This document shows, one piece after another, positions 4,289 to 62,557 of a DNA stretch of 64,000 bases (its first letter is position 1; each line of letters opens with the position of its first letter). The translations under genes and the position numbers were made by a program. The notes beneath the pieces are model-generated. The model saw nothing but the letters and a program-made list of their open reading frames with translations. It made no database searches and had not been told where the DNA came from. Source of the DNA: Paeniglutamicibacter terrestris (GTDB lineage Bacteria > Actinomycetota > Actinomycetes > Actinomycetales > Micrococcaceae); NCBI RefSeq assembly GCF_012271785.1, contig NZ_JAAWVT010000007.1, positions 62,001 to 126,000 of the forward strand, read 5' to 3'.

Positions 4289-4678
4289 ATGAGGATCGGA
4301 CAGCTCGCGGAAGCAACTGGCACGACGACCAAGACCCTGCGGTTCTACGAGGAGTCGGGGCTACTCCCTCCCGCCGAGCGCCTGGCATCCGGCTATCGGG
4401 ACTACGCCGAGGATGCCGTGGGGAAGGTCGCATTCATCCACCGCGGCCAGGCCGCCGGGCTCACCCTCGCCCAGATCCGCCAGATCCTGAAGATCCGCGA
4501 GCACGGCCAGACACCGTGCTCGCACGTCCAGGGCCTGCTCGGGCAGCGCCTCGGGGAACTCGATGCCCAGATCGCCGAACTCCTGGCCCTCCGGGAAACC
4601 ATTTTCCAGCTCCACGAAAAGGCAAGCAAGCCGGAGCCGGATTCCTGCTCCTCCGACCAGGTCTGCCGCTACATCTGA
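4289..4678 (+). CDS. merR: MerR-family mercury-responsive regulator
   Basis: 129 residues. The N-terminal winged helix-turn-helix (MRIGQLAEATGTTTKTLRFY, then EESGLLPP) is typical MerR, followed by the long dimerisation helix. Three cysteines are placed as in metal sensors: Cys77 at the start of the helix (TPCSH) and Cys120 and Cys126 near the end (SCSSDQVC). In MerR of Tn501 three cysteines across the dimer bind one Hg(II). Here the two C-terminal cysteines are closer together (five residues between, against eight). The ATG at 4289 has an AAGGAGG site. The gene is divergent from merA across the operator, so it should repress and activate both promoters. A related metal could also be an inducer. 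Confidence 0.85.
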   Translation: MRIGQLAEATGTTTKTLRFYEESGLLPPAERLASGYRDYAEDAVGKVAFIHRGQAAGLTLAQIRQILKIREHGQTPCSHVQGLLGQRLGELDAQIAELLALRETIFQLHEKASKPEPDSCSSDQVCRYI

Positions 4679-16929: not shown

Positions 16930-17679
16930 ATTTTTCCCCCATAAATCGTGCTTATTATCCGTGGTATTTCCTGACAGTAAGCATATGGGTCTGCCCAAGG
17001 TTTAGTTGACAAGTTGGATTGATATTTCGGAGACCTACTGGTCGGGCCACTGCCAATATGTTGGATTTTTCTACAGTGCTTCGGGAGCGCAGAATCGGTC
17101 TGCGGAGACAGCAATAGGAATACAGGAACTCAAAAGGAACGTGGTTAAGTGCTTAGCGCCAACCGGTGTACCACTGGTCGTCAAGGCCGTGGAAGGCGGA
17201 AATTATGTTGGATTCACAGGAAGCCGAATAAGGGGACTGAAAAGTCCAAGATTTCATGAAGGCTGTTTCCAAGAATCGTTACCAGTCAGCAGCGTGCGAC
17301 CCTGCGGACAACCTACAAATAGCGCGAGCCTACTCGAACACGCCTGAACTCAGCCGTGCGGACGAATTCACAGACCCCCAATGCCAACTTTCTCTGTCGT
17401 AAAATCACTCTAGCGTCGGTTATTCCACTTTTTCACAATCCACCCCGGCAACATGCTGCTTGCTCTCAGTGGACAGCCCGTCACCATTACGATTCACGGT
17501 GTGAAGCACTCAGCGGGGGGTGCAACAGCCCGAATGCTCAACAAGAGAGTCATCACGCGACTTAATGAGTGGAACCAATGCCTGGTGTTCTTTGGCCTGT
17601 GTGAAGCCGGGCATTTGACCACCACGTCTCTCATGTTCCTGTTCATAGTTATATCGGGACCATGAGATAGGTTTTCTTT
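16930..17679. other. Gene-poor stretch with transposase-tail relic
   Basis: It contains copy 2 of the 39-bp repeat (17151-17189). A 70-codon plus-strand frame (17453-17665, MLLALSGQPVTITIHGV at its start and a hydrophobic end) has no ribosome site and is not called. It probably carries the promoter of the repeat-protein cassette. Confidence 0.35.
17151..17189 (-). repeat. Copy 2 of the 39-bp repeat
   Basis: 35 of 39 positions match 2428-2466. On the minus strand it reads HGLDDQWYTGWR then a stop. The two copies bracket a 14.7-kb block holding the mercury, partition and replication genes and the ATPase/GIY-YIG genes, in direct orientation. Confidence 0.5.
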
Positions 17680-35294: not shown

Positions 35295-37071
35295 TCCGCG
35301 CGGCACTGCACTGGGCCCGCTGCTGATGCTGGTCCTGCTTCTTACCGTCCCCTACCTAGCGTTGAACCTCGGCGAGGCGCTAACCCCCACGGGCTCGGCC
35401 ATCACCTGGAACATCCCGAACCTTGGCGCGGCCATCGTGCAGGGCCAGGTTTCCTGGCCGTTCGCCTCCACATTCATCGCAGTCGGATTGTTCATCGCCA
35501 TGGTCTTTGCGGCGGCGGTCCTCGTTGAAGGCAGCAAGAACTTGCGGACCAAGAACAGCGGCCAGGGTCCTTCAGCCGGAACCTTGCGAGTCCTGTCCCT
35601 TCGCCATGCTGCCAAATATGCACGCAAGGGCCTGCGGGTCCCACCCGGGACCAAAGACAAGGACCTCGTGGTGTCCATGGCGACAACAAGCCAGCGCAGG
35701 AAACCGCTCTACATGCAGTTCGAGGATTCCTGCTGGGTCTACGCCCCCACCCGTGCTGGCAAGACCCTCACCATTGTCGCCCCAGGAATTCTCAGCGCTC
35801 CGGGTCCGGTCTTGGCGACTTCCACCAAGGTCGATGTCCTCACCCACACCGCAGTCCCCCGTCTGGAAACAGGCCAGGTATTTGCCTTTGATCTGGAACA
35901 AATCAGCGGCTGGCCCCACCAGGTCTTCTGGAATCCGGTGCACGGATGCCAGAAAGACACCGAGGCACTGGCCCGCGGCAAGGCCTGGGCACGGGCCACC
36001 TCCAAGGGAAACGTGAAAAACGGTGACTGGTTCGCCGACCAGGCCGCTGCCGTCCTCGGCCGGCTTCTGCACGCCGCCGCGTTGGAGAGCAAAGACCTGC
36101 GTGATGTCATGCGCTGGGCATCGGACTTCAGCGACGCGGAACCGGTGGAAATTTTGCGCCGCAACGGAGCCCCAGAATCTTTCATCGCCCGATTAGTGGA
36201 CCTGCGCACCTCGCGTGCCGGGGAGGCAGTGGATGGCATCAAGATGACCCTCCAAGGACTCTTCGAACCTCTAGCATCCGAGCGTGTCCTTGCCCAATTA
36301 ATTCCCGGAAATCAAAGTACCTTTGATGCCGAAGAATTCCTGAACGGACAAAACACCCTCTATGTCATTGCCGACGGGGAAGCCTCCCCGCTAGCACCAC
36401 TGGTAACGATGTTTACCGACTTCGTGTTCCGCACCGCCAGACACCTGTCCCAGCAACGCGCCGGGGGCAGGCTTTGGCCAGTGTTCACCATGTTCTTAGA
36501 TGAGGCACCGAATGTGGCCGCCATTCAGGACATGCCGGCGGTGCTCTCAGATTCCGGGGGACGCGGCATCCGGGTGCTGGGCTTCTCATCATCCTTCGCC
36601 CAAAACGAGGCTCGTTGGGGTCTTGAAGCGGCCAAGGCCATCCAGGAGACCGCGAACGTCATCATCCTGATGCCCGGACTCAAGCGCGAAGCGCTGAAAG
36701 ACTACGCGGCCGAAATGAGTACTAAGCAGAAGCAACGCCGCAGCCATTCCACCGGCCGCAACGGAGGCTCCACGACCACCAGTGTCGAAGATGTACAGGT
36801 CATGACGCCTGAGGAGATCAAGCACCTGCGTGTCGGGGAAGCATTGGTGGTGTATCGGAACCTGCCGCCCTTCGTAGGGCGGATGCACCCCTTGTGGGAG
36901 CGCAAAGACTGGAAGCACCTCAAGGAACAAAGCCGCCAAGCAGAATTGATGTGCGGGAAGTTCTTCGTCGATGAAGACCTGGGGGCGGAGGTGCAGAGCC
37001 ATGGATACGGAAGATTCATCGGACGGATCGGGAACCGGATCGGAGAACGTCTCGCCCGCCGCGGAAGCTAA
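35281..37071 (+). CDS. traG: Coupling protein, TraG/VirD4 family
   Basis: 596 residues. Two N-terminal membrane segments (ALGPLLMLVLLLTVPYLALN and TFIAVGLFIAMVFAAAVLVE), then the ATPase: Walker A VYAPTRAGKTLTIVAP, FAFDLEQISGWPHQVFWNPV and Walker B WPVFTMFLDEAPNVA. SSSFAQNEARWG and a conserved MTPEEIKHLRVGEALVVYRN end region complete the family pattern. It links the relaxase-DNA complex (relaxase at 53915-58261) to the channel. Confidence 0.9.
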   Translation: MPATNPRGTALGPLLMLVLLLTVPYLALNLGEALTPTGSAITWNIPNLGAAIVQGQVSWPFASTFIAVGLFIAMVFAAAVLVEGSKNLRTKNSGQGPSAGTLRVLSLRHAAKYARKGLRVPPGTKDKDLVVSMATTSQRRKPLYMQFEDSCWVYAPTRAGKTLTIVAPGILSAPGPVLATSTKVDVLTHTAVPRLETGQVFAFDLEQISGWPHQVFWNPVHGCQKDTEALARGKAWARATSKGNVKNGDWFADQAAAVLGRLLHAAALESKDLRDVMRWASDFSDAEPVEILRRNGAPESFIARLVDLRTSRAGEAVDGIKMTLQGLFEPLASERVLAQLIPGNQSTFDAEEFLNGQNTLYVIADGEASPLAPLVTMFTDFVFRTARHLSQQRAGGRLWPVFTMFLDEAPNVAAIQDMPAVLSDSGGRGIRVLGFSSSFAQNEARWGLEAAKAIQETANVIILMPGLKREALKDYAAEMSTKQKQRRSHSTGRNGGSTTTSVEDVQVMTPEEIKHLRVGEALVVYRNLPPFVGRMHPLWERKDWKHLKEQSRQAELMCGKFFVDEDLGAEVQSHGYGRFIGRIGNRIGERLARRGS

Positions 37072-37648
37072 GGGCACCATCGAAGAAGTTGTCCTAGACC
37101 ATGACAACAAGCTCGAGTATCTGCACACGATGATGCAGGACCAGCAGAAAACGCTGGCAGCACTAGTCAAACATCTAGAACGGCCGAACAGCTCCCCTGA
37201 TTTTCAGGATCCTTCGCCGTGGAATCTAAAGGACGGGACCGAAATACAGCGGCGCAAGATCCTAGGCCAGCTCAACGATTGGATTAGTTGGTACAACGAC
37301 AACTACCCCGGAGTCGAGGAACACGTGATCCCTCCGTGCTGGTTCCTTCACCGCGCCGTCGTTCAGGAATTGGTGGCCGTGTTCGTGGCCTGGCAGGCTG
37401 CCTACTGTGGGTTGGAGGAGCCCGATGATGCGCCGGCGTATTGGCATGAGCGGATCCTTCATCCCACCATCGCACGGCTCTCGAGGGACAAAGCTGCTGG
37501 ATGGGGCAACTGCCTGGGCGCCCATCGGGAACCTCATGCCCCAGACTTTGACGGCCCCGAGCAGCCCGCATTTGAAGCGTGGCTCGACGCGTTGTCGGCT
37601 CGGGCCAAACCGGTCAGCCAAAGTGTAAAAAACCTTAGCTTTGGCTGA
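37001..37648 (+). CDS. Hypothetical protein at the end of the transfer operon
   Basis: 215 residues from the ATG at 37001, inside the traG end, with GGAGG upstream. An acidic N-terminus and a coiled-coil-like stretch (DHDNKLEYLHTMMQDQQKTL) precede a Trp-rich domain (LNDWISWYNDNYPGVEEHVI, then PPCWFLHRAVVQELVAVFVA). This domain recurs in genes following TraG in actinobacterial plasmids, as far as I recall, without a known role. The stop codon lies inside the terminator stem. Confidence 0.65.
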   Translation: MDTEDSSDGSGTGSENVSPAAEAKGTIEEVVLDHDNKLEYLHTMMQDQQKTLAALVKHLERPNSSPDFQDPSPWNLKDGTEIQRRKILGQLNDWISWYNDNYPGVEEHVIPPCWFLHRAVVQELVAVFVAWQAAYCGLEEPDDAPAYWHERILHPTIARLSRDKAAGWGNCLGAHREPHAPDFDGPEQPAFEAWLDALSARAKPVSQSVKNLSFG

Positions 37649-37652
37649 CCGG
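37610..37652 (+). terminator. Terminator of the transfer operon
   Basis: A 14-bp perfect stem (CCGGTCAGCCAAAG at 37610-37623, reverse complement at 37639-37652) includes the last codons and stop of the upstream gene. It is followed by GACGAAAAATT instead of T's, so it may be factor-assisted or protect the 3' end. Confidence 0.65.
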
Positions 37653-37910
37653 TGACGAAAAATTCAGCGTCCATTATCCCTTGTGCCAGGTTCAGAATGA
37701 CATCCAGAGACTTGGGTCTTGGCAAGTCGCCCTATTATCAAATTTGACTGCAACCACGGCACCTAGTCTGGAGTATCCCATGTAAAGATTGTGACAATTC
37801 AGCAGAACGGTCAGAGACCACAACAGGCACAAACACTGGTATCACTTCAAAAATGCCATCATGATTCTTGAATTCTGCTAAGAATCAAACCTTGGGCCTA
37901 GAGCAGCGGG

Positions 37911-38096
37911 CTACTCCATCCTGCGAGCTCGCCGCCTCGCAACGATGATCCAGACCACTGAAGCGACGAGGACCACCGCCCCGGCCGATGTCATGAACGG
38001 GGTGACTCTCGGTACTCCAACGAACAGCCAATTGACTGCACCCAGAACCATTAGAACGGTACCGACCATCAGAAGAAACTGAAACAAGTACCTCAT
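37911..38096 (-). CDS. Small two-TM protein at the end of the lan operon
   Basis: 61 residues (MRYLFQFLLMVGTVLMVLGA, then a second hydrophobic segment and the basic end ARRRARRME). It lies 69 bases after the ABC permease, in the same direction. Small membrane proteins in this place may contribute to self-protection as LanI-type immunity, but it could also be unrelated. Confidence 0.6.
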   Translation of the reverse strand: MRYLFQFLLMVGTVLMVLGAVNWLFVGVPRVTPFMTSAGAVVLVASVVWIIVARRRARRME

Positions 38097-38165
38097 GCAT
38101 TCACCCCGCTGGACGAAAAATGTCGTATGCGCTTCGATATGACATCGTGTCCTTCACTCCGGACC

Positions 38166-39002
38166 TCACACGGTAAGCGCACGGCGCCGGACTCCAATGA
38201 CGTAACCGATGACAATCAACACAACCGCGTAGGCCCCCAAAACCGCCATTGCCGGACCAACCTGGAGTGCTTCCCCACCCAGCCCGCCCATTGCGCTGTC
38301 GCTTCCTGTAGCATCCACTGGCCAGACTATGGCCCAATTAGCCGATCCGGGCAAGAATTTGCCGATAGTAGCAAAATCGGTATTTTCGTTGCTGAACGAG
38401 GTTAGCATTGGTTCCAGGAACAAGGTGAACAACAGAACGATAACGACGGCGGCCACCTGGTTTCGCACGATGAGTCCGAGACCAAAGCCGATCAGGCCCC
38501 ATACCGCGAAAGTGACTACTGTCCGGGCTCCGATGGCCCATTGTGCCGCAGTAATAGATTCGGATGTGAATGATGGTTCACTTGACATCAAGGCATAGAC
38601 AATTGCGAAACTCACTGCAACGCCGACAACAGCGGTGACCAAGGAAATCACCACGACGGTCCCAATCTTTGCCACTGTGACCATCGCCCGCGACTTGAAG
38701 AAGATCAGTGTCTTTGCGAACAGACCATTCGACTGGTCGGCCGTAGCAACCAGAACGCCCACCAAGAACGTTCCGAAGTACGCCGATCTCCCCGTTGATG
38801 AGTACAGATAGTAACGGACCAGATCCTCGAATTCCTCGGGTGTACGAGAGGGAACACCGTATTCCACCTGTGACATCATTCCTGACCCGGTGCCGAAGGA
38901 AATTAGTCCTGCAAACAGAACACATAGAATCATGATGCCGGGGATGACCGGCGTCCCCACCGTTTTTTGAATCTCAAACTTCAATGCAGCAACCATCGTC
39001 AC
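38166..39002 (-). CDS. Lanthipeptide immunity ABC transporter permease
   Basis: 278 residues (276 from the ATG at 38996). Six membrane segments typical of ABC-2 permeases such as LanE/LanG, with an extracytoplasmic loop after the first. The GTG start overlaps the ATPase stop by 4 bases. With the ATPase it should export or expel the mature peptides from the membrane of the producer. Only one permease is present, so it probably works as a homodimer. Confidence 0.8.
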   Translation of the reverse strand: MTMVAALKFEIQKTVGTPVIPGIMILCVLFAGLISFGTGSGMMSQVEYGVPSRTPEEFEDLVRYYLYSSTGRSAYFGTFLVGVLVATADQSNGLFAKTLIFFKSRAMVTVAKIGTVVVISLVTAVVGVAVSFAIVYALMSSEPSFTSESITAAQWAIGARTVVTFAVWGLIGFGLGLIVRNQVAAVVIVLLFTLFLEPMLTSFSNENTDFATIGKFLPGSANWAIVWPVDATGSDSAMGGLGGEALQVGPAMAVLGAYAVVLIVIGYVIGVRRRALTV

Positions 39003-39700
39003 TTGCCCTCCCTCGCGAAACGCAGGTATGCCTGCTCCAATGATTGTCCGGAGCGCAGATCGTCCACGTCTCCTCTAAAAGCGACTGCTCCATCCCGGAG
39101 CAGGACCACATCCTGTACGAACTGTTCAGCTTCGTTCAGCATGTGGGACGAAACTAATACAGTGGCCCCCCGTTCCGCTACTTCGATCAGGAGGTCACGG
39201 AGCCATTGAATTCCCTCCGGGTCAAGTCCATTCATCGGTTCATCCAAGAGAACATAGTTCGGCGAACCAATGAGCATCTCCGCCAAGCCCAGCCTCTGAC
39301 GCATTCCAAGCGAGTACGTGCGGATTCTCCGCTTCGAAGCCCCCTGCAACCCAACTTTCTCGATGGCCTGATTAATCTCACCTGAATCGGCACCAACGGC
39401 ATCAGCCACCATACGTAAATGCCCAATTCCTCGACGCCAACCATCTTGACCTTTCTTTTCGAACAGCGCGCATACGCCTCCTTTGCCTCGAGGCAGGGAA
39501 GCGAGCGGTTGTCCGCCGAAAGTAATCTCGGCCCCTGAAACCGGGATAAGGCCAAGCATGGAACTGAGAGTGGTTGTCTTCCCAGCACCATTCGGCCCGA
39601 GGAACCCAGTGATCCTGCCCGGAGCCGCAGTAAAGGCCACGTCCTTTAGGACATCCCTGCCACCGAGTCGCTGGTTTAAGCCGCTAACCTTGATACCCAT
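38999..39700 (-). CDS. Lanthipeptide immunity ABC transporter ATPase (LanF-like)
   Basis: 233 residues from the ATG at 39700, 4 bases after lanT. Walker A LGPNGAGKTTTL, signature YSLGMRQRLGLAEML, Walker B NYVLLDEPMNGLD and the switch histidine in VLVSSHMLNEAEQF are all present. The sequence resembles BcrA/LanF ATPases of antibiotic self-resistance transporters. An unusual stretch (LFEKKGQDGWRRGIGHLRMV) lies where the Q-loop is expected. Its job is probably protection of the producer. Confidence 0.85.
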   Translation of the reverse strand: MGIKVSGLNQRLGGRDVLKDVAFTAAPGRITGFLGPNGAGKTTTLSSMLGLIPVSGAEITFGGQPLASLPRGKGGVCALFEKKGQDGWRRGIGHLRMVADAVGADSGEINQAIEKVGLQGASKRRIRTYSLGMRQRLGLAEMLIGSPNYVLLDEPMNGLDPEGIQWLRDLLIEVAERGATVLVSSHMLNEAEQFVQDVVLLRDGAVAFRGDVDDLRSGQSLEQAYLRFAREGK

Positions 39701-39704
39701 TCTT

Positions 39705-41915
39705 TCAATCTCCCTTGAAGGCAATATGGATTCCGGAAGATTCCCGGAATGCTGAGGTTTCTTTTTCCGGTTCGAGGGCATCGAAGTGGCCATCGGCCAA
39801 AACCGATGCAGTGTCCTCTTCAGCCGCTTCGTTACGGAACTCTAGGTATTCCAATACCGACATGGTGGAGAGACCGCCACCTGCCTCATCAAGCCTAAAT
39901 ACAACGTCTGCGTTTTTTATTGTGGACAGCCGGTGCGCAATAACCACCTTGGTCATGTTGAGCTTGCTGAGCTGCTCTGTGACATCCTTTTCCGTTTGCT
40001 CGTCCAAGTGGCTCGTTGCCTCATCTAGAACCAGCAGGGAAGGCCGTCCCACAATTGCACGGGCAATGGCTAGTCTCTGGAGCTGGCCCCCCGAAAGGCC
40101 CTTCCCCGATTCACCCAACGGCGTGTCAAGCCCCATGGGCAATGTCTTCAGGAGCTCTGTCAGTCCTGCCATCGCGCAGGCCTCCAGCATGTCGTCCCGA
40201 GTGATCCATTCGCGTCCGAAGGCGATGTTGTCCCCTAGGCTGCCGCTGATTCCTGAGACGGTCTGCGTGACCAAGCCGACGCGCGATCGAACGCTGTGCA
40301 AATCGACTTGAGTACTATCGAACCCTTGGTATCGAATCGTGCCCACCTTTGTTGGCAGCAACCCGAGGATGGTCTTCGCCAGTGTGCTCTTCCCGGCCCC
40401 AGACGGGCCGACTATGGCCGCGGTCTGTCCCGCAAGCAAAGAGAAAGAAGCGCCCTCGATAACCGGTTTTTCGCCGTCGTAGGCGATAGTCACGTCCACA
40501 AATTCAACTTGTCCCTGGAAATCGATAGCCTCGCCTCCGCCCATGGCCTCGGGAGCTTCGTCGGTAATGTCTTGGAGCCGCGCGGTGTGTACACCGACCG
40601 TCTGTAGGCTCTGCAGAGCAATCCCGATATTTTGAACTGGACCGATAGCCGTACCTGCCAGCGTCCCTGCAGCCAAAAGCTGACCAATGGTCATTTCCCC
40701 CATGCTAAAAAGGAAAACTCCCATGCACAGAAGTGCTAAGGGCACGAAGAGTGAAAAGGCTTGGAAGACCGCATAGAGAACATTCTCGAGCCGCTCACGC
40801 TGTACCGACCACCGAACACTCTCGAGGTAACGAGCCTCGTACCGTTCTTGGGATTCCGTTTCCAGTCCCAACGACTTAATCGTCTCGATACCCTCGATCG
40901 ATTCCAATAGAATCGACTGGCTCTCAGCCATCTTCTGGAGTTCTTTGTCGGCTAGGCGCTTTGATAAACCCAAGGTAAACAGGACGATGCCACCGAAAAT
41001 GAAGAGAAGCGCCAAGACTGCCAGTAGATAGAAAACGTGGTAAGAAGCCAGGACCATCCCGTAGAACAACAGCAACATCCCGTCCATGAAGAGCGGAAAC
41101 AGTCGTCCGCTAACGGCATCTCGGATCGTTGACGCAGACGAGAACCTTACTAACAAATCGCCGCTTGACCGGTTCATGAAGTACGAGAAAGGCAGCTTGA
41201 GTAGGTGTCGGAACATCCTCAACATCATGGCAACATCAATTGATTTCTCAAGCCAGAGGATCATTTCCGACCGCGCCAGCACAAGCAGAAAATGAAAGAG
41301 AGCAACGCCGACAAATAGCAATGCCAAAGGGAGCACCGCGTTCTCAAGCCCAAAGGGAACTAGATGGTCAACCACGACCTGAGTTGTCAGAGCTGGCAAC
41401 AGGGCCAGCATTGAAACAAGTCCAGCTAAAACGGGAAGGCCAAACATCCACGATGTATTGTGCGGGAGGTACTTGACTACAAACGGCAGCAGACCGCCCT
41501 GCTTGGTCCGCCTTCGCTTAAACTCTTCCCCGGGGCTAACTGTCATGAGAACGCCACTGAAGCTGGCGGCGAACTCCTCAGCATCGACCACAATCTCCCC
41601 GACGGCGGGGTCGATAACTTCGACTCTTCCGCGGCGTATCCGGCTTATGACAACGTAGTGAGAGTTTTCCCAGAACGCAATCGCCGGCACTGGGAAGTCT
41701 GAGAGTTGAGCAGAGGAGTTCACGCCGAACAGCTTGACGTCGAAGCCCTGACGAGTTGCAATAGAGCGCATCTGGGCGAGATTAAGACCTGAGCGTCCCG
41801 GCGCGGCAAACTGCCGCATTTCTTGAATGGTCGTCTCGTAGCCGTAGTGCGACATAAGGGTGGATAACGCGGCAAGGCCGCATTCAGTTTCAGTCGATTG
41901 CAATACTGTTCTCAT
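39705..41915 (-). CDS. lanT: Lanthipeptide exporter with C39 leader peptidase (LanT)
   Basis: 736 residues from the ATG at 41915 (GGAGG nine bases before). The N-terminal C39 peptidase has Cys12 in STETECGLAALSTL, His86 in FWENSHYVVISR and Asp102 in EVIDPAVG, the complete catalytic triad. Six membrane segments follow, then the ATPase: Walker A VGPSGAGKSTLAKT, signature LSGGQLQRLAIARAI, Walker B LLVLDEATSHLDE. It removes leader peptides at double-glycine type sites while exporting both lanthipeptides. The start overlaps the upstream stop as ATGA. Confidence 0.93.
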   Translation of the reverse strand: MRTVLQSTETECGLAALSTLMSHYGYETTIQEMRQFAAPGRSGLNLAQMRSIATRQGFDVKLFGVNSSAQLSDFPVPAIAFWENSHYVVISRIRRGRVEVIDPAVGEIVVDAEEFAASFSGVLMTVSPGEEFKRRRTKQGGLLPFVVKYLPHNTSWMFGLPVLAGLVSMLALLPALTTQVVVDHLVPFGLENAVLPLALLFVGVALFHFLLVLARSEMILWLEKSIDVAMMLRMFRHLLKLPFSYFMNRSSGDLLVRFSSASTIRDAVSGRLFPLFMDGMLLLFYGMVLASYHVFYLLAVLALLFIFGGIVLFTLGLSKRLADKELQKMAESQSILLESIEGIETIKSLGLETESQERYEARYLESVRWSVQRERLENVLYAVFQAFSLFVPLALLCMGVFLFSMGEMTIGQLLAAGTLAGTAIGPVQNIGIALQSLQTVGVHTARLQDITDEAPEAMGGGEAIDFQGQVEFVDVTIAYDGEKPVIEGASFSLLAGQTAAIVGPSGAGKSTLAKTILGLLPTKVGTIRYQGFDSTQVDLHSVRSRVGLVTQTVSGISGSLGDNIAFGREWITRDDMLEACAMAGLTELLKTLPMGLDTPLGESGKGLSGGQLQRLAIARAIVGRPSLLVLDEATSHLDEQTEKDVTEQLSKLNMTKVVIAHRLSTIKNADVVFRLDEAGGGLSTMSVLEYLEFRNEAAEEDTASVLADGHFDALEPEKETSAFRESSGIHIAFKGD

Positions 41916-42298
41916 AGACTGCCACCTCCATTGCCTAAGAATGAGTGGACGGTTTTCCACAGCGTGCTTTGTTCATTGACTTCAATTGGCGTGTTGACTT
42001 GAAGCCGCGGCCCGGGACACGGAGAGACCGTGACTTGATTCCCGGATCGAATAGTGTCAGCACCGAGAATCTGAATCACCCGCAGAGGAACCTGATTCGT
42101 TTCCGTGGGTTGAATGACGCACGATTCGCCCGCATGACTTTTAACGGTTCCAGACCATGTGGCCGAATACGGAACGGATACGGCTGCCCAGAAGATACCC
42201 GCAACAAGAACCACTCCAGCCATGCTCGGCCACCACCTCGGACGGATGGTCGGAACCAGTTCGCTCGCCTCGACATCGATATTCGTTGTCATGCTCAT
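41912..42298 (-). CDS. Small membrane accessory protein of the lan operon
   Basis: 128 residues. A cytosolic N-terminus, one membrane segment (PSMAGVVLVAGIFWAAVSVP) and an extracytoplasmic part with strands (TWSGTVKSHAGESCVIQPTE, then PLRVIQILGADTIRSGNQVT). The latter looks like the barrel half of a membrane-fusion (HlyD-like) protein. Overlaps of 4 bases with lanM and lanT show tight coupling. It might help LanT or bind the immunity transporter. Class II clusters do not normally encode such a protein between lanM and lanT, as far as I know. Confidence 0.65.
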   Translation of the reverse strand: MSMTTNIDVEASELVPTIRPRWWPSMAGVVLVAGIFWAAVSVPYSATWSGTVKSHAGESCVIQPTETNQVPLRVIQILGADTIRSGNQVTVSPCPGPRLQVNTPIEVNEQSTLWKTVHSFLGNGGGSL

Positions 42299-45200
42299 GC
42301 CGTGTGAACGACCTTGCTACGCGGTACCGCAAGGCCAAAGGACAGAGCTTCCCAAGTGACCGACTGGTTATTTCCCATCAGCCGGCGGAGTCCCCAAGAC
42401 ACCCCACTCAGTCCCATGAAGAGGTCGGGGATGGGGGCTCCTGGGAGTCCACCAAGACGTGGCCCTCGAGAGCAGATGGAGCTGATCGATGCCTCGACGG
42501 TCCGATCCAGCCGCTCGTGGGTCCCACGTTGCAAGAATCCGGCCTCCGCTAGCATTTTGAGAATCACGAGGTTACCTAGTCGACCATGGCACAAGCAGTC
42601 GCCGAGGAAGTCAGCGCCAGTGGACAGGAGGCTTCCATCGATCTCATCGAGGATCGCTTTTGAGACTGGGTCAAAGATCCTTCCATATTCCTGTTGCCGG
42701 GCTTCGTCCAAAGAGTTCCAGGAAAGCGCCCTGGCCAAGAGAGCTCCGGGCGAACCGTGGCACCAAGCGCGCATGGACGCGGCAGGCTCCAGTCCATCAC
42801 GCAGGTCGGGCCAGTTAAGAGTATTCGCGTCGAAAAGGGAGTCATCAAAGTCAAGAGCGGCCCGCCCAAGAAGGAGCGCTTCGCGGTCCCCGGTCTCACG
42901 CGCACCCGCCAATAGGTAAGTAGCAATTCCTGCAGCACCATGTGAGAACCCGCCAAGAAGTTGACCAGTCTCAGGATCGCGCCACCCGATGCCTTGTGCA
43001 GCTTCTTCTGCATGTACCTTCAGGTGGCGCGTAGCCTTGGTTATCAGGGCTTGGAGTCGATCGTCGTCAACAATGCCTCTAACTGCAAGAGCAGTAGCGA
43101 TCGATCCAGCGCTGCCGGACATGACGTCGTACGTCTTATCTTCGTCGATGAGATGGATAAGTAGTTCGACCACATCCCGAGCCGCACCTTCTACATCAAT
43201 GTCGCGTCGCAGTCCTGGGACTGTGGCTAGGCAGGCCGCCCAACCAGCCAGACTGGATGCTGCACCAACATCCATTGCTCTCAATGCAGCCCCATCGCCA
43301 GCAAGGCCGGCGTGTACTATCGCTTCCATGGGGCGCATCGACCGGAGCAGGAGGTCGTGGTGAAGGGATACTTCGCTGGACCCCTCACTCTGAAGTGCTT
43401 GATCCGCGAGTAGCATCCCGGCACGACCGTTATAAGTTTCGAAGCCGACGGGGGCCACCGTCCAATGCGCGGCCGAGGCTGCGATTAAGGTCGTGCTAGC
43501 TAGGGTCTCTTCAACTTCCCTAAATCCTGCGACAGCCCTCCCCATGATCGATCTTGCCGGGCCATTTGCGGTCTCGGAGGAAGTCAGCCTCCCTAAGGTG
43601 TCTATGTTGCGAATAGGTGCACCAATAGATGCAAAGCTCTGCTCAATCACTCGTTTCTGATATTCCACGTGGGCGGCGTCCAAGACATCGACCAGTCTCG
43701 TGGCAAGGCGCTCACGGATTGTCGGTGCGCCAGCTACTTCTCCGTCCCATGGGGACGCGTCATCCAGAGAACAGCTGATGTGCGGAATATCCCCTACCAG
43801 CAACGAACGGTACTCGGAACGGATGAGTTCAAGTCGGCCTGGGGCATTAACGTAGCCGTTCCAAGCTTTGGCTAAGACAACATCGCGTGCCGTACCAAAC
43901 TGCAGGAAAAACGGGTGAAATGATTCCGAGAGGAGTTTAGCGTAGACCATGGTCGGTCGAGGAATATATCGCAGTTGCGCCCGGTCGAAATAGTCGACAA
44001 CATCATCCGGTCCGGACGCTAGCGCCACCTGAGTTCGGCATGCAGATGCGGCGGCAAGAAAGCCTTCGAGGAACTCTTCGCCGTGGATTCGCAATAATGG
44101 TTCGCCGGGTCCTCCGTCGTCGTCGATCAAGGCCTCGATGATCCGCGGCAGTCCCGCTTCGTCAGTGCTAAGTGTTGGGACGACCATGGGCGTCCTTTGC
44201 CCAGCAGAGTAGCCCACCACGCTGATGTCCGTCGCTTCAATTCCTCCGTCTGGGCTTCTGGATACGATCTTGCCTGGGACAATCCCTGCAACTGCAACCG
44301 AATCCATCAGCACACGAAAGGCCGGGTCTGCATTCTCATCGAGTGGTTGGGTCGCCTGTCGCGCGTCAACGCGAACAACTGTTTCCAAATCGACAGGGCA
44401 GGCACGCCCGCCCGCAAACCGAACGTTTTCGTGGTGGAAGTCATTTCCCCCGAGAATATTGATGACTGCGGATAGTGCGCCCAATGTCCGGGCTGCTCCG
44501 GCGGCATCTTCAGCCTCTAGCGGATCGTCCTTGATATGTTCATGCCACGACCAACTTCCTCGGTCGATGACGTGGGGCACAGCGAAGCTAAGTGGACCGA
44601 CATCACCAAAGAGCCGGTCACGCAAATTCTGAAGTGCGATTTCGTTCGTCCCACCTCGCGGTTTATACACGAGTACGCCATACCGGGTTGTAACCACAAT
44701 GACGCTTCGACCTTCCAGATGGGAGTCACCAGCACCTATCGAAATATCGATGACGTCAGGACCCTTCGGGAGCTCTCCTTCCGGATGATCGGAAAAGTCA
44801 AGGAACTTTTCTTCTTCTAGTACCGGCAGATCGAGCATTAGATGCTTTACGAACTCCAATAGCCGCGCCTGCCAGAAAAGTAGCCGAGTCACCACCAACC
44901 GAGTGAGAACCGGATACTTCCAAGTCAAGTTTTCTTCGAAGCGCTCCTGAGCGATGAGTTCGCCGAATGTCGCCGATGAATCTTCGTTGCCAGCCTGGTT
45001 ATGCAATTCTTGAACCAAGGTCCGGGTCGTTAGATTCTGCACGTCCTCCAACGGCGGAAGGTCAAGCAGTGCAACTGCCACTGCATGGACGAGGCGATTT
45101 TGCCTACTACTTGGGCCCGGCAGGAGTAATTCCATGGACTCACGCAGTTCGTCAACAGCTCCTTGAACGAGCGTCTGATAGGGCATAGTCGACGAGGAAT

Positions 45201-45546
45201 CCCGAATATTTGCTCGGCGCCACCATCGCTGGCGCGTAGCCTCCCATTCGGGTGGGGCGACCACGCCCGAAAGGTCACCATCGATTTCGGCCAGAGTCAG
45301 TGCCTTGCTGAGATCCATTGGATCCATCTGCAAAATCTCCGAGACCACTTCGATCCCTTCAGCCCAGACTTTGGTTTGGGACCAAAGGCCTAGCGTTTCA
45401 GGGCTCTCGGGCCTGATACCGGTGAAATCACCAGCTACTCCATCGAGATCTACAAGTTCCCGCGTCGTCAAGGCCCTCCACCACGGGAACGCCCTCTGCT
45501 CCGTCTCCGGATCAACTACGCTTCCCGTTTGCTCATCTACCAGCAT
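42295..45546 (-). CDS. lanM: Class II lanthionine synthetase LanM
   Basis: 1083 residues. The dehydratase domain carries VYKPRG (293-298), GNDFHHENV (367-375) and PVDLETV (384-390), which bind ATP and phosphorylate/eliminate Ser and Thr. The LanC-like cyclase domain has the zinc ligands Cys929 in WCHGSPG and Cys986-His987 in CLCHGRLGN, and GGFSHGAAGIATYL. A single LanM must modify both precursors; two-peptide systems often use two LanM enzymes, so shared use is notable. The ATG at 45546 has a GGAG site. Its end overlaps the next gene by ATGA. Confidence 0.95.
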   Translation of the reverse strand: MLVDEQTGSVVDPETEQRAFPWWRALTTRELVDLDGVAGDFTGIRPESPETLGLWSQTKVWAEGIEVVSEILQMDPMDLSKALTLAEIDGDLSGVVAPPEWEATRQRWWRRANIRDSSSTMPYQTLVQGAVDELRESMELLLPGPSSRQNRLVHAVAVALLDLPPLEDVQNLTTRTLVQELHNQAGNEDSSATFGELIAQERFEENLTWKYPVLTRLVVTRLLFWQARLLEFVKHLMLDLPVLEEEKFLDFSDHPEGELPKGPDVIDISIGAGDSHLEGRSVIVVTTRYGVLVYKPRGGTNEIALQNLRDRLFGDVGPLSFAVPHVIDRGSWSWHEHIKDDPLEAEDAAGAARTLGALSAVINILGGNDFHHENVRFAGGRACPVDLETVVRVDARQATQPLDENADPAFRVLMDSVAVAGIVPGKIVSRSPDGGIEATDISVVGYSAGQRTPMVVPTLSTDEAGLPRIIEALIDDDGGPGEPLLRIHGEEFLEGFLAAASACRTQVALASGPDDVVDYFDRAQLRYIPRPTMVYAKLLSESFHPFFLQFGTARDVVLAKAWNGYVNAPGRLELIRSEYRSLLVGDIPHISCSLDDASPWDGEVAGAPTIRERLATRLVDVLDAAHVEYQKRVIEQSFASIGAPIRNIDTLGRLTSSETANGPARSIMGRAVAGFREVEETLASTTLIAASAAHWTVAPVGFETYNGRAGMLLADQALQSEGSSEVSLHHDLLLRSMRPMEAIVHAGLAGDGAALRAMDVGAASSLAGWAACLATVPGLRRDIDVEGAARDVVELLIHLIDEDKTYDVMSGSAGSIATALAVRGIVDDDRLQALITKATRHLKVHAEEAAQGIGWRDPETGQLLGGFSHGAAGIATYLLAGARETGDREALLLGRAALDFDDSLFDANTLNWPDLRDGLEPAASMRAWCHGSPGALLARALSWNSLDEARQQEYGRIFDPVSKAILDEIDGSLLSTGADFLGDCLCHGRLGNLVILKMLAEAGFLQRGTHERLDRTVEASISSICSRGPRLGGLPGAPIPDLFMGLSGVSWGLRRLMGNNQSVTWEALSFGLAVPRSKVVHTA

Positions 45547-45594
45547 TTCTTTCCGCTCCTCAACAACCCGTATTCACTCAGTTATGGCCGCTTG

Positions 45595-45648
45595 GGGCCG
45601 GACGACGTCCGGCCCGGCCTCGTCTTTCGTAACGATGCCGGGCCGGAC
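45595..45648 (-). promoter_or_regulatory. Mutually exclusive hairpins between precursor genes and lanM
   Basis: Stem A pairs 45637-45648 with 45607-45618 (GTCCGGCCCGGC, 12 bp perfect, loop 18). Stem B pairs 45607-45615 with 45595-45603 (GGGCCGGAC, 9 bp, loop GAC). Both use 45607-45615, so only one can form. This sits between the stop of the second precursor gene and lanM. It may limit read-through so that precursors are made in excess over the enzyme. Confidence 0.65.
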
Positions 45649-45658
45649 TGACTTTGGC

Positions 45659-45862
45659 TCAGACGCAGCTGGGCGTGTTGCAGACCAATCCGCACTTCGT
45701 CCACGATGAGTACCAAGGCAGGCACCAGCAGCAGCCGAGTGTCTTCATCGTTTGACTACCGCGTGCAGCCGAGGCGATACCTTCAACCGATCCGTCGTCA
45801 AGGTCACTCAGATCAACGAATCCAGCCGGATCAAACTTTTCCATGGTGGCAGTAATTTTCAT
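45659..45862 (-). CDS. Lanthipeptide precursor A1 (six-cysteine core)
   Basis: 67 residues. The leader (MKITATMEKFDPAGFVDLSD to ARGS, 36 residues) ends in a GS site acceptable to C39 peptidases. The 31-residue core contains six Cys (core positions 8, 9, 11, 21, 25, 30), four Thr and three Ser. The core middle is LGCCWCLPWYSSW and its end CNTPSCV. The WY element and the CxxPSC-type end recall alpha peptides of two-component lantibiotics such as haloduracin, but the CTxxxEC lipid II motif is missing. Start ATG 45862 with AGGGGA upstream. It lies 57 bases after precursor A2. Confidence 0.88.
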   Translation of the reverse strand: MKITATMEKFDPAGFVDLSDLDDGSVEGIASAARGSQTMKTLGCCWCLPWYSSWTKCGLVCNTPSCV

Positions 45863-45919
45863 TTATTTCCCCTAAAGAAATTTAAAGACTACGAGACGGA
45901 CAAATTCTGACTCTAGGTG

Positions 45920-46111
45920 TTAGGCCCATTTGCCGCAGCAACCACGAGTGCCGAGTTGACAGGAGCCGAACAGCAGCGTGTTCCCGTCCCACTCCCACCA
46001 GTTGCCACCAGCCAAGGCCTGGGCCTCTGCCGAGTCCGCCGAAATTTCGTACAACGGGTCACCCGACAGATCAACACGACCCGCCGGACTTCCAGTTCTT
46101 TTCTTATCCAT
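45920..46111 (-). CDS. Lanthipeptide precursor A2 (double-glycine leader)
   Basis: 63 residues from the ATG at 46111 (AAGGGA six bases before). The leader (MDKKRTGSPAGRVDLSGDPL to ALAGG, 36 residues) ends in a classic GG site. Its AG-R-VDLS stretch parallels AG-F-VDLS in A1. The 27-residue core starts NWWEWDGNTLLFGS and ends GCCGKWA. It has three Cys (15, 22, 23) and three Ser/Thr (9, 14, 19), so at most three rings. The cluster of three tryptophans at the N-terminus is unusual. First gene of the operon, so it should be the most abundant product. Confidence 0.88.
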   Translation of the reverse strand: MDKKRTGSPAGRVDLSGDPLYEISADSAEAQALAGGNWWEWDGNTLLFGSCQLGTRGCCGKWA

Positions 46112-46237
46112 TTCATTTCCCTTCAAAAAAACTGAACGAATATCATGAATTTCAACGATTATCGCTGCATTCCATGACGTCAACGAGTCCAGTATTGTCG
46201 AAAGGCAAGGGTTAATCAATCAATTTTAGTCAACGTT

Positions 46238-46257
46238 GGTTGCATATGTGCGCAACC
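46238..46257. promoter_or_regulatory. Dyad upstream of the lan operon
   Basis: GGTTGC and GCAACC flank 8 bases (46238-46257), between the end of the HTH gene and the first precursor gene, about 127 bp before its start. It could be the operator for the neighbouring regulators. A possible promoter (TTGACG, then GATAAT/TAATCG) lies near 46145-46175 on the minus strand, read with low confidence. Confidence 0.45.
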
Positions 46258-46272
46258 TATATTGACGTGCGC

Positions 46273-46818
46273 CTACAAGCCTCCTTGGTCCTTAACATAA
46301 AAAACGTCCGGAAATCGAACCGCAGCAACTTCCCATTCCCGGGAGCTTTTTTGTTCAACTCGCCGCAGCGAAAGCATTGAATCGCGCCGCACCGACCACT
46401 TTCGGTCCGTCATTTCGACAGAGTGTTCACCATGCCTAGAAGCTCTCAGTTTCCACCCGAGTAGTCCTGCGGCTTCAAGGATGTTCACTTCGTCACCTCT
46501 AGTCGTGGGACCGAGCATTACCCTCGCACTGTCACTTGACAGCTTCAGACCTTCCTTGCCAAACCTCTGCTGCATGGCTTGCCGGGAGATGCCCATTGCA
46601 TCACCGAGCAGACTCCATGGCACCCCTTGTGCGCGAGCCGCTTGAACCGCGTCCTGCTGCAAGCGGAGTATCTCCGCCCGCATGGAGTCAAGTACCACGA
46701 CCGATCTAACTAGTTGCGAGGCGTCGAGCCCTTGGGACTCGTCCGGGTTCTCAATTCCCAGGCGCTGCAAGCCAATGCGCGCCAATATCGCCGCCAGCGA
46801 TTCGTCATTCGTGGCCAT
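46273..46818 (-). CDS. HTH regulator 1 next to the lan operon
   Basis: 181 residues. A central helix-turn-helix reads GVPWSLLGDAMGISRQAMQQ after a helical stretch (LDSMRAEILRLQQDAVQAAR). The C-terminal part (MTDRKWSVRRDSMLSLRRVE, then WEVAAVRFPDVFYVKDQ) is beta-rich and may sense a ligand. It shares order and motifs with regulator 2 at 47123-47653, in particular the HTH, the GPTTRGDEV / GPVTRRDEV block and a VxxxRFPDxFxV end. It follows the membrane protein gene by two bases and precedes the precursor genes, so it probably controls them. Confidence 0.7.
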   Translation of the reverse strand: MATNDESLAAILARIGLQRLGIENPDESQGLDASQLVRSVVVLDSMRAEILRLQQDAVQAARAQGVPWSLLGDAMGISRQAMQQRFGKEGLKLSSDSARVMLGPTTRGDEVNILEAAGLLGWKLRASRHGEHSVEMTDRKWSVRRDSMLSLRRVEQKSSREWEVAAVRFPDVFYVKDQGGL

Positions 46819-46820
46819 GA

Positions 46821-47090
46821 TCAGTTCTCATCCGAAGGCTTCCAGGAAGTGCCATCCGCAGCGTGGAGGCTGGAACTCCGCCTGTCGATTAGGAAGCAAG
46901 CGATCCATGCAAGGACTGCAATCAAGAATGCGACACTAGCCGGGGCGAGAATCAGCACCGGTAGCGGCATGCCAACCAACAGGCTTAGAAGTAGAACAAC
47001 AGCCAGACCAATCGTGATCCATTTGGCGATACGCCTGTAGAGGTCCAACTTACGTTGCTGCGCATTTATGTTTTTCTCGTTTTCAATCAT
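46821..47090 (-). CDS. Two-TM protein between the two HTH regulators
   Basis: 89 residues. Two adjacent membrane segments (about 24-64, IAKWITIGLAVVLLLSLLVG and LPVLILAPASVAFLIAVLAW) with charged ends inside. It lies 32 bases after regulator 2 and 2 bases before regulator 1. A membrane signal protein working with the regulators, or an additional immunity protein, are both possible. Confidence 0.6.
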   Translation of the reverse strand: MIENEKNINAQQRKLDLYRRIAKWITIGLAVVLLLSLLVGMPLPVLILAPASVAFLIAVLAWIACFLIDRRSSSLHAADGTSWKPSDEN

Positions 47091-47122
47091 GTGTCAATGA
47101 TCCCTTGACACAAGTATCGGTG

Positions 47123-47653
47123 TCAACCATCAATGAGACGACGTACAAGAAAACAATCAGGAAACCGGATGCTGGAGACGCTCCATCCATCACCGTCAGG
47201 TGGGGACGGTGAGAATACAAAGCGACGACTCAATTCCCATTGTCCATTCGTCGTCCGCCTCAACAGGTGGTGCCCATGGAACGATTGCGTGGGAATCCAG
47301 CCTTCCAGAGCCGAGGCACCAAGCTCCAAAACTTCATCTCGGCGAGTAACGGGCCCCAAACGACGCAGACCTTCGGCGCCCCCGCCCTCACCGCTGGTTG
47401 AGTACTTCTTTTGGACGGCCTGGCGAGTAACTCCCATGGCTTCTCCGATTTGAGACCAAGGGCTCCCATGCCACCGAGCAGATTTAACAAGCTGGCGTTC
47501 CATCCGCTCACAGTGCATCTTGACGACCGTCAACGCTTCCAACGTCTCCAGGGTCAGGGCTTTATCGCACGATCCTTCATGATCTTCATCGTCGCCATAT
47601 GCCTTCCAAGCGAGCTTTAGAATCTCCAGATCAAGCTGTTTCTCCGTGTACAT
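47123..47653 (-). CDS. HTH regulator 2 next to the lan operon
   Basis: 176 residues. Paralogue of regulator 1: helical N-terminus (TLETLEALTVVKMHCERMER), HTH GSPWSQIGEAMGVTRQAVQK, block GPVTRRDEVLELGASALEGW and end SSIRFPDCFLVRRLIDG. Two related factors could form a heterodimer, or one could answer the mature peptides and the other set the basal level. No two-component (LanRK) pair is present, so control of this cluster is unlike nisin-type autoinduction. Confidence 0.7.
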   Translation of the reverse strand: MYTEKQLDLEILKLAWKAYGDDEDHEGSCDKALTLETLEALTVVKMHCERMERQLVKSARWHGSPWSQIGEAMGVTRQAVQKKYSTSGEGGGAEGLRRLGPVTRRDEVLELGASALEGWIPTQSFHGHHLLRRTTNGQWELSRRFVFSPSPPDGDGWSVSSIRFPDCFLVRRLIDG

Positions 47654-50463: not shown

Positions 50464-50823
50464 CTACTTGCTTGGCATCCAGTCGTTCCATTCTTGTGTG
50501 GACCAGCCGCCGGATCGCCCGGGCTTACCCGGTGTCCCCGGGATGCCAGGCCGTCCAGGACGGCCGCCGATCCCCGGCCTGCCTGGCACACCGCTGAGTC
50601 CTGGGCGAGGGATGGAGGCGGAGATGTCGCGCGTCATCCCGATGGCACGGTTCTGGGAGTCCCAGAAGACACCCTGTTCGAACCAACCAAGGTGGTACCC
50701 CTTCTGGTAGCTGATCACACTACTGCCGTTAACAAAACCTCGGTGCGCTCCGCCCAGGTCCAAGATGTCTTTGCCGTAAAGCCAAGCAACGACAGCGCCG
50801 TTCTTGTTGAATATCGGGTCCAT
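50464..50823 (-). CDS. 4-fold beta-flower type protein with collagen-like tail
   Basis: 119 residues. The first 65 residues (MDPIFNKNGAVVAWLYGKDI, then FEQGVFWDSQNRAIG) show short repeated DKNG-x-xxW/FxxxG turns. I associate this pattern with small bacterial beta-flower domains. Then comes a G-x-y stretch of about 11 triplets (GLSGVPGRPGIGGRPGRPGI, then GTPGKPG), as in collagen triple helices, and a short Trp-rich end (STQEWNDWMPSK). No signal peptide, so the collagen-like part is cytosolic unless exported otherwise. Function unknown. Confidence 0.75.
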   Translation of the reverse strand: MDPIFNKNGAVVAWLYGKDILDLGGAHRGFVNGSSVISYQKGYHLGWFEQGVFWDSQNRAIGMTRDISASIPRPGLSGVPGRPGIGGRPGRPGIPGTPGKPGRSGGWSTQEWNDWMPSK

Positions 50824-61567: not shown

Positions 61568-62557
61568 TCAGTGCTTGGTGGTTGCGGATTCGGGCAGTTG
61601 GCCGCTGGCAATCAGTCGGGTCAGCAGCTTGGTGAGACGGTGCCCGGGGTCGGCGGTGCGGGCAAGGTCCAAAAAGGCCATGGCTTCGCTTCCCTTTCCT
61701 TCGATCCAGCGCGTCCAGCCCAGCCCGGCCAGCAGGTCGGTGCGGTGCTCCGGGGGAATGTATTCCAGGGCCGTGTAGATGGCATCGGCTCCGTTCCTGA
61801 AGTGATCCCAGCTGTCCGGGGGAACTTCTCCCATGAGCGCGGCACCCATGATCTCCGGGTCCAACGTGGCAACGGCCAGCGAGGCGAAGACCAGATCACG
61901 GATGCCCTTGTTCGTGCAGGTTCCGGCCAGCCATGCCGCCTGCGCAGGGGTCACTGCTCCGGTCTCCCGGTACCCGGTCGTCATGCCGACCAAGGTGTAA
62001 AGCACCTTGATGCGGGTGGGCTGGTCCTGCTCATGGAGCGGGCGGGCTTCCTCTGCGAAGCGGCGCACGTGCGCCGCCGCATCCTTGGTGGTGCAGTGCG
62101 GGATGTCGGCGGCGAGCTTCGGGTAGCTCTCGGTGCCAAGCATGAGCGCCAGTGCCGCATTCGAGGTGGCGACCGTGTCGCAGGGAACCTTCTCCGGGTT
62201 CCGGTGCTCGTAGTCGGTGAGGTATCCGTCGCGAATCAGCAGGGCGTGGCGGATGGGGCGTCCGGTCCGGGCGAGGATGGTGTCCAGGGCCCGGTACTGT
62301 GCCGGGGTCATCGCCCGGTCATTTTCGAAGCTGAGCAGCAGCACCCCGGTGACCTTTGCGAGGCGGTCGACGTAGTGGGTGACTTCGGCGGCCCAGAATC
62401 CCGCGGGGGCTTCGGGGCGTGCGTCGAGGCGCAGGGTGGCTGCCACGGTGCGGTGTTCCAGCAGCATCAGCACCACCGAGGAGGTGGGGGTGAAGCCGAG
62501 GGAGTGGATGGCGACCGCGACGGTGTCGGCCATCGTGGTGGCGGTGATCTTGTCCAT
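61568..62557 (-). CDS. DUF4192 family protein
   Basis: 329 residues from the ATG at 62557 with GAGGA upstream. The start (MADTVAVAIHSLGFTPTSSV, then VVLMLLEHRTVAATLRLD) and the later AAWLAGTCTNKGIRDLVFAS and ALGWTRW-like segments fit the actinobacterial DUF4192 family, usually chromosomal single genes of unknown role. The plasmid form seems complete. Open frames on the plus strand opposite are shadows. Confidence 0.8.
   Translation of the reverse strand: MDKITATTMADTVAVAIHSLGFTPTSSVVLMLLEHRTVAATLRLDARPEAPAGFWAAEVTHYVDRLAKVTGVLLLSFENDRAMTPAQYRALDTILARTGRPIRHALLIRDGYLTDYEHRNPEKVPCDTVATSNAALALMLGTESYPKLAADIPHCTTKDAAAHVRRFAEEARPLHEQDQPTRIKVLYTLVGMTTGYRETGAVTPAQAAWLAGTCTNKGIRDLVFASLAVATLDPEIMGAALMGEVPPDSWDHFRNGADAIYTALEYIPPEHRTDLLAGLGWTRWIEGKGSEAMAFLDLARTADPGHRLTKLLTRLIASGQLPESATTKH

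What the first reader, a model, noticed from the sequence alone, without database searches (positions are those of the whole stretch)
37911..47653. Complete class II lanthipeptide operon with two unusual precursor peptides
Seen: two precursor genes with 36-residue leaders, a shared AG-x-VDLS motif and GG/GS processing sites. One LanM has all catalytic residues, LanT has a full C39 triad, and an immunity-type ABC pair follows, most lan genes joined by overlaps. A1 has six Cys in a 31-residue core; A2 has three Cys and an N-terminal Trp cluster. Known: two-component lantibiotics are made this way, often with two LanM enzymes. Inference: a new two-peptide lantibiotic (or two separate ones) made by one LanM. 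I cannot match either core to a known peptide, and the CTxxxEC motif is absent.
Basis: partly seen in the sequence, partly recalled or inferred. Interest (0 to 1): 0.9.

Follow-up and report, generated by a model that had tools for sequence, protein, structure and literature searches.

The report
Roseocin-type two-peptide lantibiotic gene cluster
An unnamed bacterium, probably an actinobacterium, carries near DNA-transfer genes a complete-looking gene set for a two-part ring-peptide antibiotic; it is a distant cousin of the known antibiotic roseocin whose second peptide looks strongly cut down.

Summary
A1 carries the published alpha motif S/TxxxxTxGCC (SQTMKTLGCC), A2 the beta motif GS/TxxxxS/TxGCC (GSCQLGTRGCC). 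A1 matches the alpha core of a genome with the published roseocin peptide at 20 of 28 positions (0 of 20,000 shuffles as good) and keeps all ten residues that form its four rings and disulfide. Gene order (beta, alpha, one LanM, small membrane protein, LanT, ABC pair) corresponds. In a LanM tree the window groups with two roseocin-type loci (100/100, 100/99). So it is a divergent member of a known kind: a two-peptide lantibiotic made by one LanM, on a contig with conjugation genes. Distinctive: LanM is about 30% identical while the alpha core is 66-71%; both leaders lack the front half of the mersacidin-type leader; beta keeps 3 of 6 cysteines behind a Trp/acidic head, and its GG cut site seems to lie ten residues further in. 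Rings, cut sites and activity are inferred, not measured.

The parts
47123..47653 (-). HTH-type putative regulator, 176 aa; paralogue of the 181-aa protein
   Evidence: 32% identity over 155 aa to the 181-aa protein, E 2e-26; no Pfam match; the helix-turn-helix reading is by eye
46821..47090 (-). 89-aa putative membrane protein, partner of the 181-aa protein
   Evidence: an 84-aa protein beside a 42%-identical regulator stands in the same order in another genome of the genus; only sub-cut-off NCBIfam hits
46273..46818 (-). HTH-type putative regulator, 181 aa
   Evidence: no Pfam match
45920..46111 (-). A2: beta-type precursor, 63 aa; leader 36 aa ending GG, core NWWEWDGNTLLFGSCQLGTRGCCGKWA
   Evidence: beta motif GS/TxxxxS/TxGCC; 13 of 19 identical to G819 beta and 10 of 13 to G731 beta
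45659..45862 (-). A1: alpha-type precursor, 67 aa; core (A-R-)GSQTMKTLGCCWCLPWYSSWTKCGLVCNTPSCV
   Evidence: alpha motif; 20 of 28 identical to G731 alpha and 21 of 32 to G819 alpha
45607..45648 (-). Strong RNA hairpin between alpha and lanM, possible attenuator or mRNA-stabilising element; no T run follows
   Evidence: 17-nt arms, 94% complementary; fold of 45555-45665 has z-score -3.68, 0 of 200 shuffles as stable; not listed by the terminator scan
42295..45546 (-). LanM, class II lanthipeptide synthetase, CHG type, 1083 aa
   Evidence: TIGR03897 6e-122; Pfam DUF4135 and LANC_like; tree with roseocin-type LanMs
41912..42298 (-). 128-aa single-TM protein (by eye) of unknown role between LanM and LanT, same place as a small membrane protein in the G731 cluster
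   Evidence: local score 58 against the G731 protein, 0 of 2000 shuffles as high, over the membrane end only; no BLASTP match at E 1e-3 among the 17 larger loci compared
39705..41915 (-). LanT, C39 peptidase-ABC exporter, 736 aa from ATG 41915 (longer GTG form from 41960)
   Evidence: Pfam Peptidase_C39, ABC_membrane, ABC_tran; 40% identical to G731 LanT and 37% to G819 LanT, the two best of the 17 loci compared
38999..39700 (-). Immunity-type ABC ATPase, 233 aa from ATG 39700 (longer frame from 39793)
   Evidence: best NCBIfam match is the lantibiotic protection ABC ATPase TIGR03740, 146 bits, below its cut-off of 310; 45% identical to the G731 and G819 ATPases
38166..39002 (-). Immunity-type ABC permease, 278 aa
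   Evidence: 37% identical to the G819 permease, its only BLASTP match at E 1e-3 among 17 loci; no Pfam match
37911..38096 (-). 61-aa putative membrane protein closing the operon, possible immunity peptide
   Evidence: no Pfam match and no BLASTP match

Best explanation
The locus is a divergent roseocin-family cluster for a two-peptide lantibiotic. One CHG-type LanM acts on both precursors, which carry short leaders, dehydrates Ser/Thr and closes thioether rings. LanT's C39 domain removes the leaders while exporting the peptides, and the ABC pair protects the producer. A1 is the alpha peptide: four (methyl)lanthionine rings (Ser2, Thr7, Ser18, Thr21 with Cys10, Cys11, Cys23, Cys27; pairing within each overlapping pair unknown) and one disulfide (Cys13-Cys32), as in roseocin alpha. 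A2 is a cut-down beta peptide with up to three rings in its C-terminal part and a ring-free Trp/acidic head. The two are expected to act together on Gram-positive bacteria. Shown: genes, homology, gene order, phylogeny. Inferred: rings, cut sites, synergy, immunity.
For: Both published family motifs fit exactly. G731's alpha agrees with each roseocin alpha residue that I saw printed in sections 16 and 19 of the paper (stretches 2-11 and 18-27, Leu8, Ser12, Cys13, Val22, Cys33, five Ser/Thr and six Cys), so it is a proper yardstick. The window's A1 core matches it at 20 of 28 positions, 0 of 20,000 shuffles as good, and keeps the ten ring and disulfide residues. Trp12 in A1 is the one natural substitution that the paper reports for Ser12. 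Gene order beta-alpha-LanM-small TM-LanT-ABC ATPase-permease is that of G731, apart from one extra 216-aa frame there between LanT and the ATPase. LanM tree: window with G819 100/100, with G731 100/99. The best BLASTP matches of LanM, LanT and the ATPase among the 17 loci compared are in the G731 and G819 loci.
Against: LanM is only about 30% identical to its nearest relatives and has a long branch of 1.71. Neither precursor matches the leader family TIGR03898 that both G731 precursors match. A2 has 3 Cys against 6 in G731 beta and 5 in G819 beta, so its role as a working beta is not secured, and its head shares nothing clear with the other betas. The permease has no BLASTP match in the G731 locus, and the regulators, the 89-aa, the 128-aa and the 61-aa proteins have none in any of the 17 loci. 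No expression, mass or activity data exist here.
Confidence: 0.86

Rival explanations
1. A1 is an alpha-like lantibiotic that acts alone; A2 has lost its beta function and is a separate peptide (signal, immunity-related or independently active).
For: A2 has three of six cysteines, lacks the N-terminal ring region and has a Trp/acidic head and a GKWA tail.
Against: A2 keeps exactly the part that the family conserves, GSxxxxTxGCC, in the same gene order, which is unlikely after loss of function.
Confidence: 0.09
2. The two peptides are independent lantibiotics that merely share a LanM.
For: Their cores do not clearly resemble each other (best local score reached by 1599 of 20,000 shuffles).
Against: Each core has its own counterpart in the roseocin pair, adjacent and in the same order, in two other genomes.
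Confidence: 0.03
3. The cluster is decaying or silent: leaders shortened, beta eroded, fast-evolving LanM.
For: Long LanM branch; short leaders; reduced beta.
Against: The reading frames are open over their full length, the residues of the conserved LanM motifs are kept although six other conserved columns depart, and junctions are tight; several start sites have purine-rich upstream sequence by eye. The relative G819 also has short leaders with a full layout.
Confidence: 0.05

Closest known systems
Roseocin (Streptomyces roseosporus) and the roseocin family (PMC10027976: outline and sections 4, 15, 16, 19, 20 seen, other passages by term search; supplements not seen)
   Same: Alpha and beta motifs, ten ring/disulfide residues of alpha, one CHG LanM for two precursors, gene order, no CTxTxD/EC motif
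   Different: LanM about 29% identical to G731's, leaders without the front half, beta with 3 of 6 Cys and a Trp/acidic head, carried near conjugation genes in what looks like Micrococcaceae (family name inferred, not given by a tool)
   Same: Short leaders, alpha core 21 of 32 identical, LanM sister at 100/100, beta-alpha-LanM followed by LanT, ABC ATPase and permease
   Different: Beta keeps 5 Cys and an N-terminal ring region; only about 200 nt lie between the open frames of LanM and LanT, so a 128-aa gene there would have to overlap
Lacticin 3147-type two-peptide lantibiotics (described in PMC10027976; haloduracin and lichenicidin recalled)
   Same: Two peptides, class II
   Different: Two dedicated LanMs and a CTxTxD/EC alpha motif, both absent here
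Cytolysin, carnolysin, bicereucin (named in PMC10027976)
   Same: One CHG LanM for two precursors
   Different: From Firmicutes; cores not compared here

Membership tests
Class II lanthipeptide cluster | LanM with dehydratase and LanC-like cyclase domains | tested here: met
   TIGR03897 over cut-off; DUF4135 and LANC_like; conserved motifs kept
Class II lanthipeptide cluster | Thioether rings in the product | not testable with these tools
   Needs mass spectrometry
Roseocin family | Precursor homologous to Ros-alpha with S/TxxxxTxGCC near the core N-terminus | tested here: met
   SQTMKTLGCC; 20 of 28 identical, 0 of 20,000 shuffles
Roseocin family | Precursor homologous to Ros-beta with GS/TxxxxS/TxGCC at the core C-terminus | tested here: met
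   GSCQLGTRGCC; 10 of 13 identical, 0 of 20,000 shuffles, but only over this stretch; four residues follow the motif
Roseocin family | CHG-type LanM in the RosM clade | tested here: met
   WCHG and LCHG present; grouped with G731 and G819 LanMs 100/99; RosM itself was not in the tree by name, G731 stands for it
Roseocin family | NHLP (mersacidin-type) leader, reported by the paper for all leaders | tested here: inconclusive
   No TIGR03898 match for A1 or A2, strong match for both G731 precursors, no match for G819 alpha and a sub-cut-off match for G819 beta at model positions 25-44 only; PAG-x-V-x-L is visible by eye
Roseocin family | Six Cys / six rings in beta as in roseocin itself | tested here: not met
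   3 Cys, 3 Ser/Thr; [quoted passage not shown]
Roseocin family | Synergistic activity of alpha and beta | not testable with these tools
   Needs purified peptides
Lacticin 3147 family | Two LanMs and a CTxTxD/EC alpha motif | tested here: not met
   One LanC-like match in the genome as held; motif absent from both cores

The most novel reading that the evidence does not exclude
A natural minimal roseocin beta: the leader cut site has moved about ten residues into the old core, so that mature beta has lost its N-terminal rings and offers a ring-free Trp/acidic head plus a C-terminal unit of up to three rings, while alpha has stayed almost roseocin. If this pair still synergises, it would separate the part of beta needed for cooperation with alpha from the rest, and would show that a LanM can work with half-length leaders while its alpha product is held constant.
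Probability: 0.35. Interest if true: 0.55.

Novelty: new variant of a known kind. Interest (0 to 1): 0.42.

Why it matters
The 2023 family paper calls roseocin the sole actinobacterial example of one LanM serving two precursors (PMC10027976). It also finds leaders better conserved than cores; here the alpha core is held while leader and LanM have drifted far, the opposite pattern. A natural pair with an almost unchanged alpha and a strongly reduced beta is a ready test of what beta has to supply, and of how little leader a roseocin-type LanM needs.

Tried and rejected
A further precursor elsewhere in the window: a six-frame scan with a relaxed family motif found A1, A2 and one frame at 62308-62466 that looks like chance; precursors of other kinds were not sought. 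Close relatives: the plasmid collection gave no match for A1, four weak matches (E about 0.01) for the G731 alpha, LanMs of 28% identity or less in the 20 listed of 100 records, and no near DNA match for the cluster or one stretch of the transfer region; viral contigs gave no relative. Genome contigs gave three distant LanMs. Weak A2 hits in 18 of 196 other family genomes (E 0.0055-0.088) and two weak alpha hits in G863 and G886 look like chance; I read the frames for G886 and did not follow the rest. Circularity of the 244-kb contig: its first and last 20 kb share no match, so plasmid or chromosomal element stays open. PMC10456417 (passages) describes a circular bacteriocin in an Arthrobacter, another thing. 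PMC12715929 (passages) includes a class II lanM region of Arthrobacter sp. ok362 in its survey; I could not see its peptides, so a relation to this cluster is open. PMC7268733 (passages) puts roseocin alpha and beta in its precursor families II 29 and II 2; I saw no sequences there. The regulators and the 89-aa protein match no PADLOC model. No tRNA and no Rfam match in the window.
Full report
What is there. On the minus strand of 37911-47653 lie, in order, a 176-aa putative regulator, an 89-aa membrane protein, a 181-aa paralogous regulator, two precursor genes, LanM, a 128-aa membrane protein, LanT, an ABC ATPase, an ABC permease and a 61-aa membrane protein (membrane readings by eye where no family matched). 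LanM passes its NCBIfam cut-off. It keeps 64 of the columns that 23 other LanMs conserve at 90% or more and departs at six: S333, A382, V423, I590, S684 and E1066; none lies in the motifs GDSH, YKPR, DFHxxN, RPT and the two CHG. It is the only LanC-like match in its genome as held (1 place). A solved-structure search finds LicM2 and CylM. A strong hairpin without a T run lies between the alpha gene and lanM.

Identity. The roseocin family paper gives S/TxxxxTxGCC for alpha and GS/TxxxxS/TxGCC for beta (PMC10027976, section 16). A1 contains SQTMKTLGCC and A2 contains GSCQLGTRGCC. A motif scan of the 39 loci then held found one other genome, G731, with a beta and an alpha in front of its LanM; the other frames it listed look like chance, save one in G430 that may be a roseocin type 3 alpha. 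G731's LanM was the best non-self hit of a search of 394 class genomes, of which 35 matched, own included in both numbers. G731's alpha agrees with each roseocin alpha residue that I saw printed, so I treat it as roseocin or an identical peptide; the genome itself is unnamed. A profile of the two alphas then found G819 in the same order: 4 of 396 genomes matched, own included, two of them weakly and probably by chance. G819 also has beta before alpha before LanM. With G819 added, the profile matched 2 of 389 class genomes, own and G731, and 1 of 161 genomes of G819's family, G819 itself. G731 and G819 were rows of the profiles that found them again.

Strength. Core alignments: alpha 20 of 28 against G731 and 21 of 32 against G819; beta 10 of 13 and 13 of 19, each confined to the C-terminal part; in all four, 0 of 20,000 shuffles scored as high. 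The motifs alone are weaker evidence: 452 and 16 of 200,000 shuffles. LanM tree of 24 rows: window with G819 100/100, then G731 100/99; 9 of 21 inner branches are drawn open for weak support, and the window's branch is long (1.71), so its depth is uncertain though its neighbours are well supported.

How it probably works. By homology with roseocin, LanM modifies both peptides. In roseocin alpha, Ser2, Thr7, Ser18 and Thr21 are dehydrated, the stretches 2-11 and 18-27 are ring-protected, and Cys13-Cys33 is a disulfide. A1 has Ser2, Thr7, Ser18, Thr21, Cys10, Cys11, Cys13, Cys23, Cys27 and Cys32. It also has Thr4, Ser19, Thr29 and Ser31, whose fate I cannot predict. [quoted passage not shown] A2 keeps the motif that I take to hold them and one more Thr/Cys pair (Thr9, Cys15), so up to three rings. 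That beta joins an alpha-lipid II complex and leads to lysis is the model for two-peptide lantibiotics quoted in the paper; a target-binding role of the roseocin alpha motif is a speculation of its authors.

What differs. (1) Leaders: TIGR03898 matches the G731 precursors at 8e-16 and 9e-18, the G819 beta at 0.036 over its second half only, and neither the G819 alpha nor the window's two. The front half (WKDPEYR in G731 beta) is missing in both the window and G819, so short leaders seem to belong to this branch rather than to this cluster alone. (2) Cut sites: for A1 the best fit to the C39 pattern is IASA|ARGSQ, with Ser instead of Gly at -2. For A2, the distance from the leader's PA to GSC is 40 residues in both the window (9 to 49) and G731 (23 to 63), and 41 in G819 from PV (7 to 48), but the window's GG lies ten residues nearer to GSC than G731's. 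This suggests that the cut site moved inwards and the old ring region became leader. It rests on spacing, not on residue matches, in one sequence. (3) LanM is about 30% identical to its relatives, while the alpha core is 71% and 66% over the aligned part; LanT is 37-40% and the ATPase 45% identical. (4) G731 has an extra frame between LanT and the ATPase; the window's regulators, 89-aa, 128-aa and 61-aa proteins found no BLASTP partner in the 17 loci compared.

Setting. The window lies at 62001-126000 of a 244-kb contig. In the same window are a TrwC relaxase, a type IV coupling protein and a ParA-type ATPase; the relaxase is the only TrwC match of the genome. The cluster has 55.3% G+C against 60.3% and 62.2% in its flanks, though 1-24999 is also low at 56.2%. 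It is therefore likely mobile, as a plasmid or an integrated element; which one is open. None of the 14 other genomes of the genus listed has a LanM match; 6 of 394 other family genomes do, the best-scoring at 29% identity. The regulator plus membrane-protein pair also stands in genome G111 with no lantibiotic gene noticed in the 3.5 kb seen, so it may be an acquired control module.

Novelty. The kind is known. This member may be new: full-text searches for roseocin with Micrococcaceae, lantibiotic with Paenarthrobacter, two-component lantibiotic with Actinomyces radicidentis, and lanthipeptide with Arthrobacter showed no description of it, judged by listings and, for two papers, passages. One of the two (PMC12715929) surveys a class II lanM region of Arthrobacter sp. 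ok362 whose peptides I could not see, and the roseocin paper's supplementary lists were out of reach, so an earlier mention cannot be excluded. Micrococcaceae as the host family is my inference from genome sizes and number of genera; no tool named it.

Noticed in passing
L067 1245-2040 (genome G111): An 84-aa membrane protein and a 183-aa HTH-type protein, relatives of the 89-aa and 181-aa window proteins in the same order, with no lantibiotic gene noticed in the 3.5-kb locus: a two-gene module of unknown function.
   Followed up: partly
15934-16998: Strong PADLOC match to UzuA (3e-75), a defence-system protein, on the same mobile-looking stretch.
   Followed up: no
12940-15375: 811-aa SMC/AAA-type ATPase with partial matches to several defence ATPases (PtuA, LmuB).
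   Followed up: no
1715-4678: Resolvase, flavin disulfide oxidoreductase and MerR-family regulator close together; the set recalls a mercury-resistance unit (recalled, not tested).
   Followed up: no
50464-50823: 119-aa frame with collagen-like Gly-X-Y repeats near its C-terminus.
   Followed up: no
L041 12601-13005 and L042 7009-7674 (genome G430): Two further precursors with mersacidin-type leaders by eye, each beside a LanM, perhaps a roseocin type 3 pair with a large alpha.
   Followed up: no
37609-37653: Perfect 15-nt inverted repeat with 15 nt between the arms; it overlaps the end of a + strand 225-aa frame (36971-37648) that converges with the lan operon.
   Followed up: no
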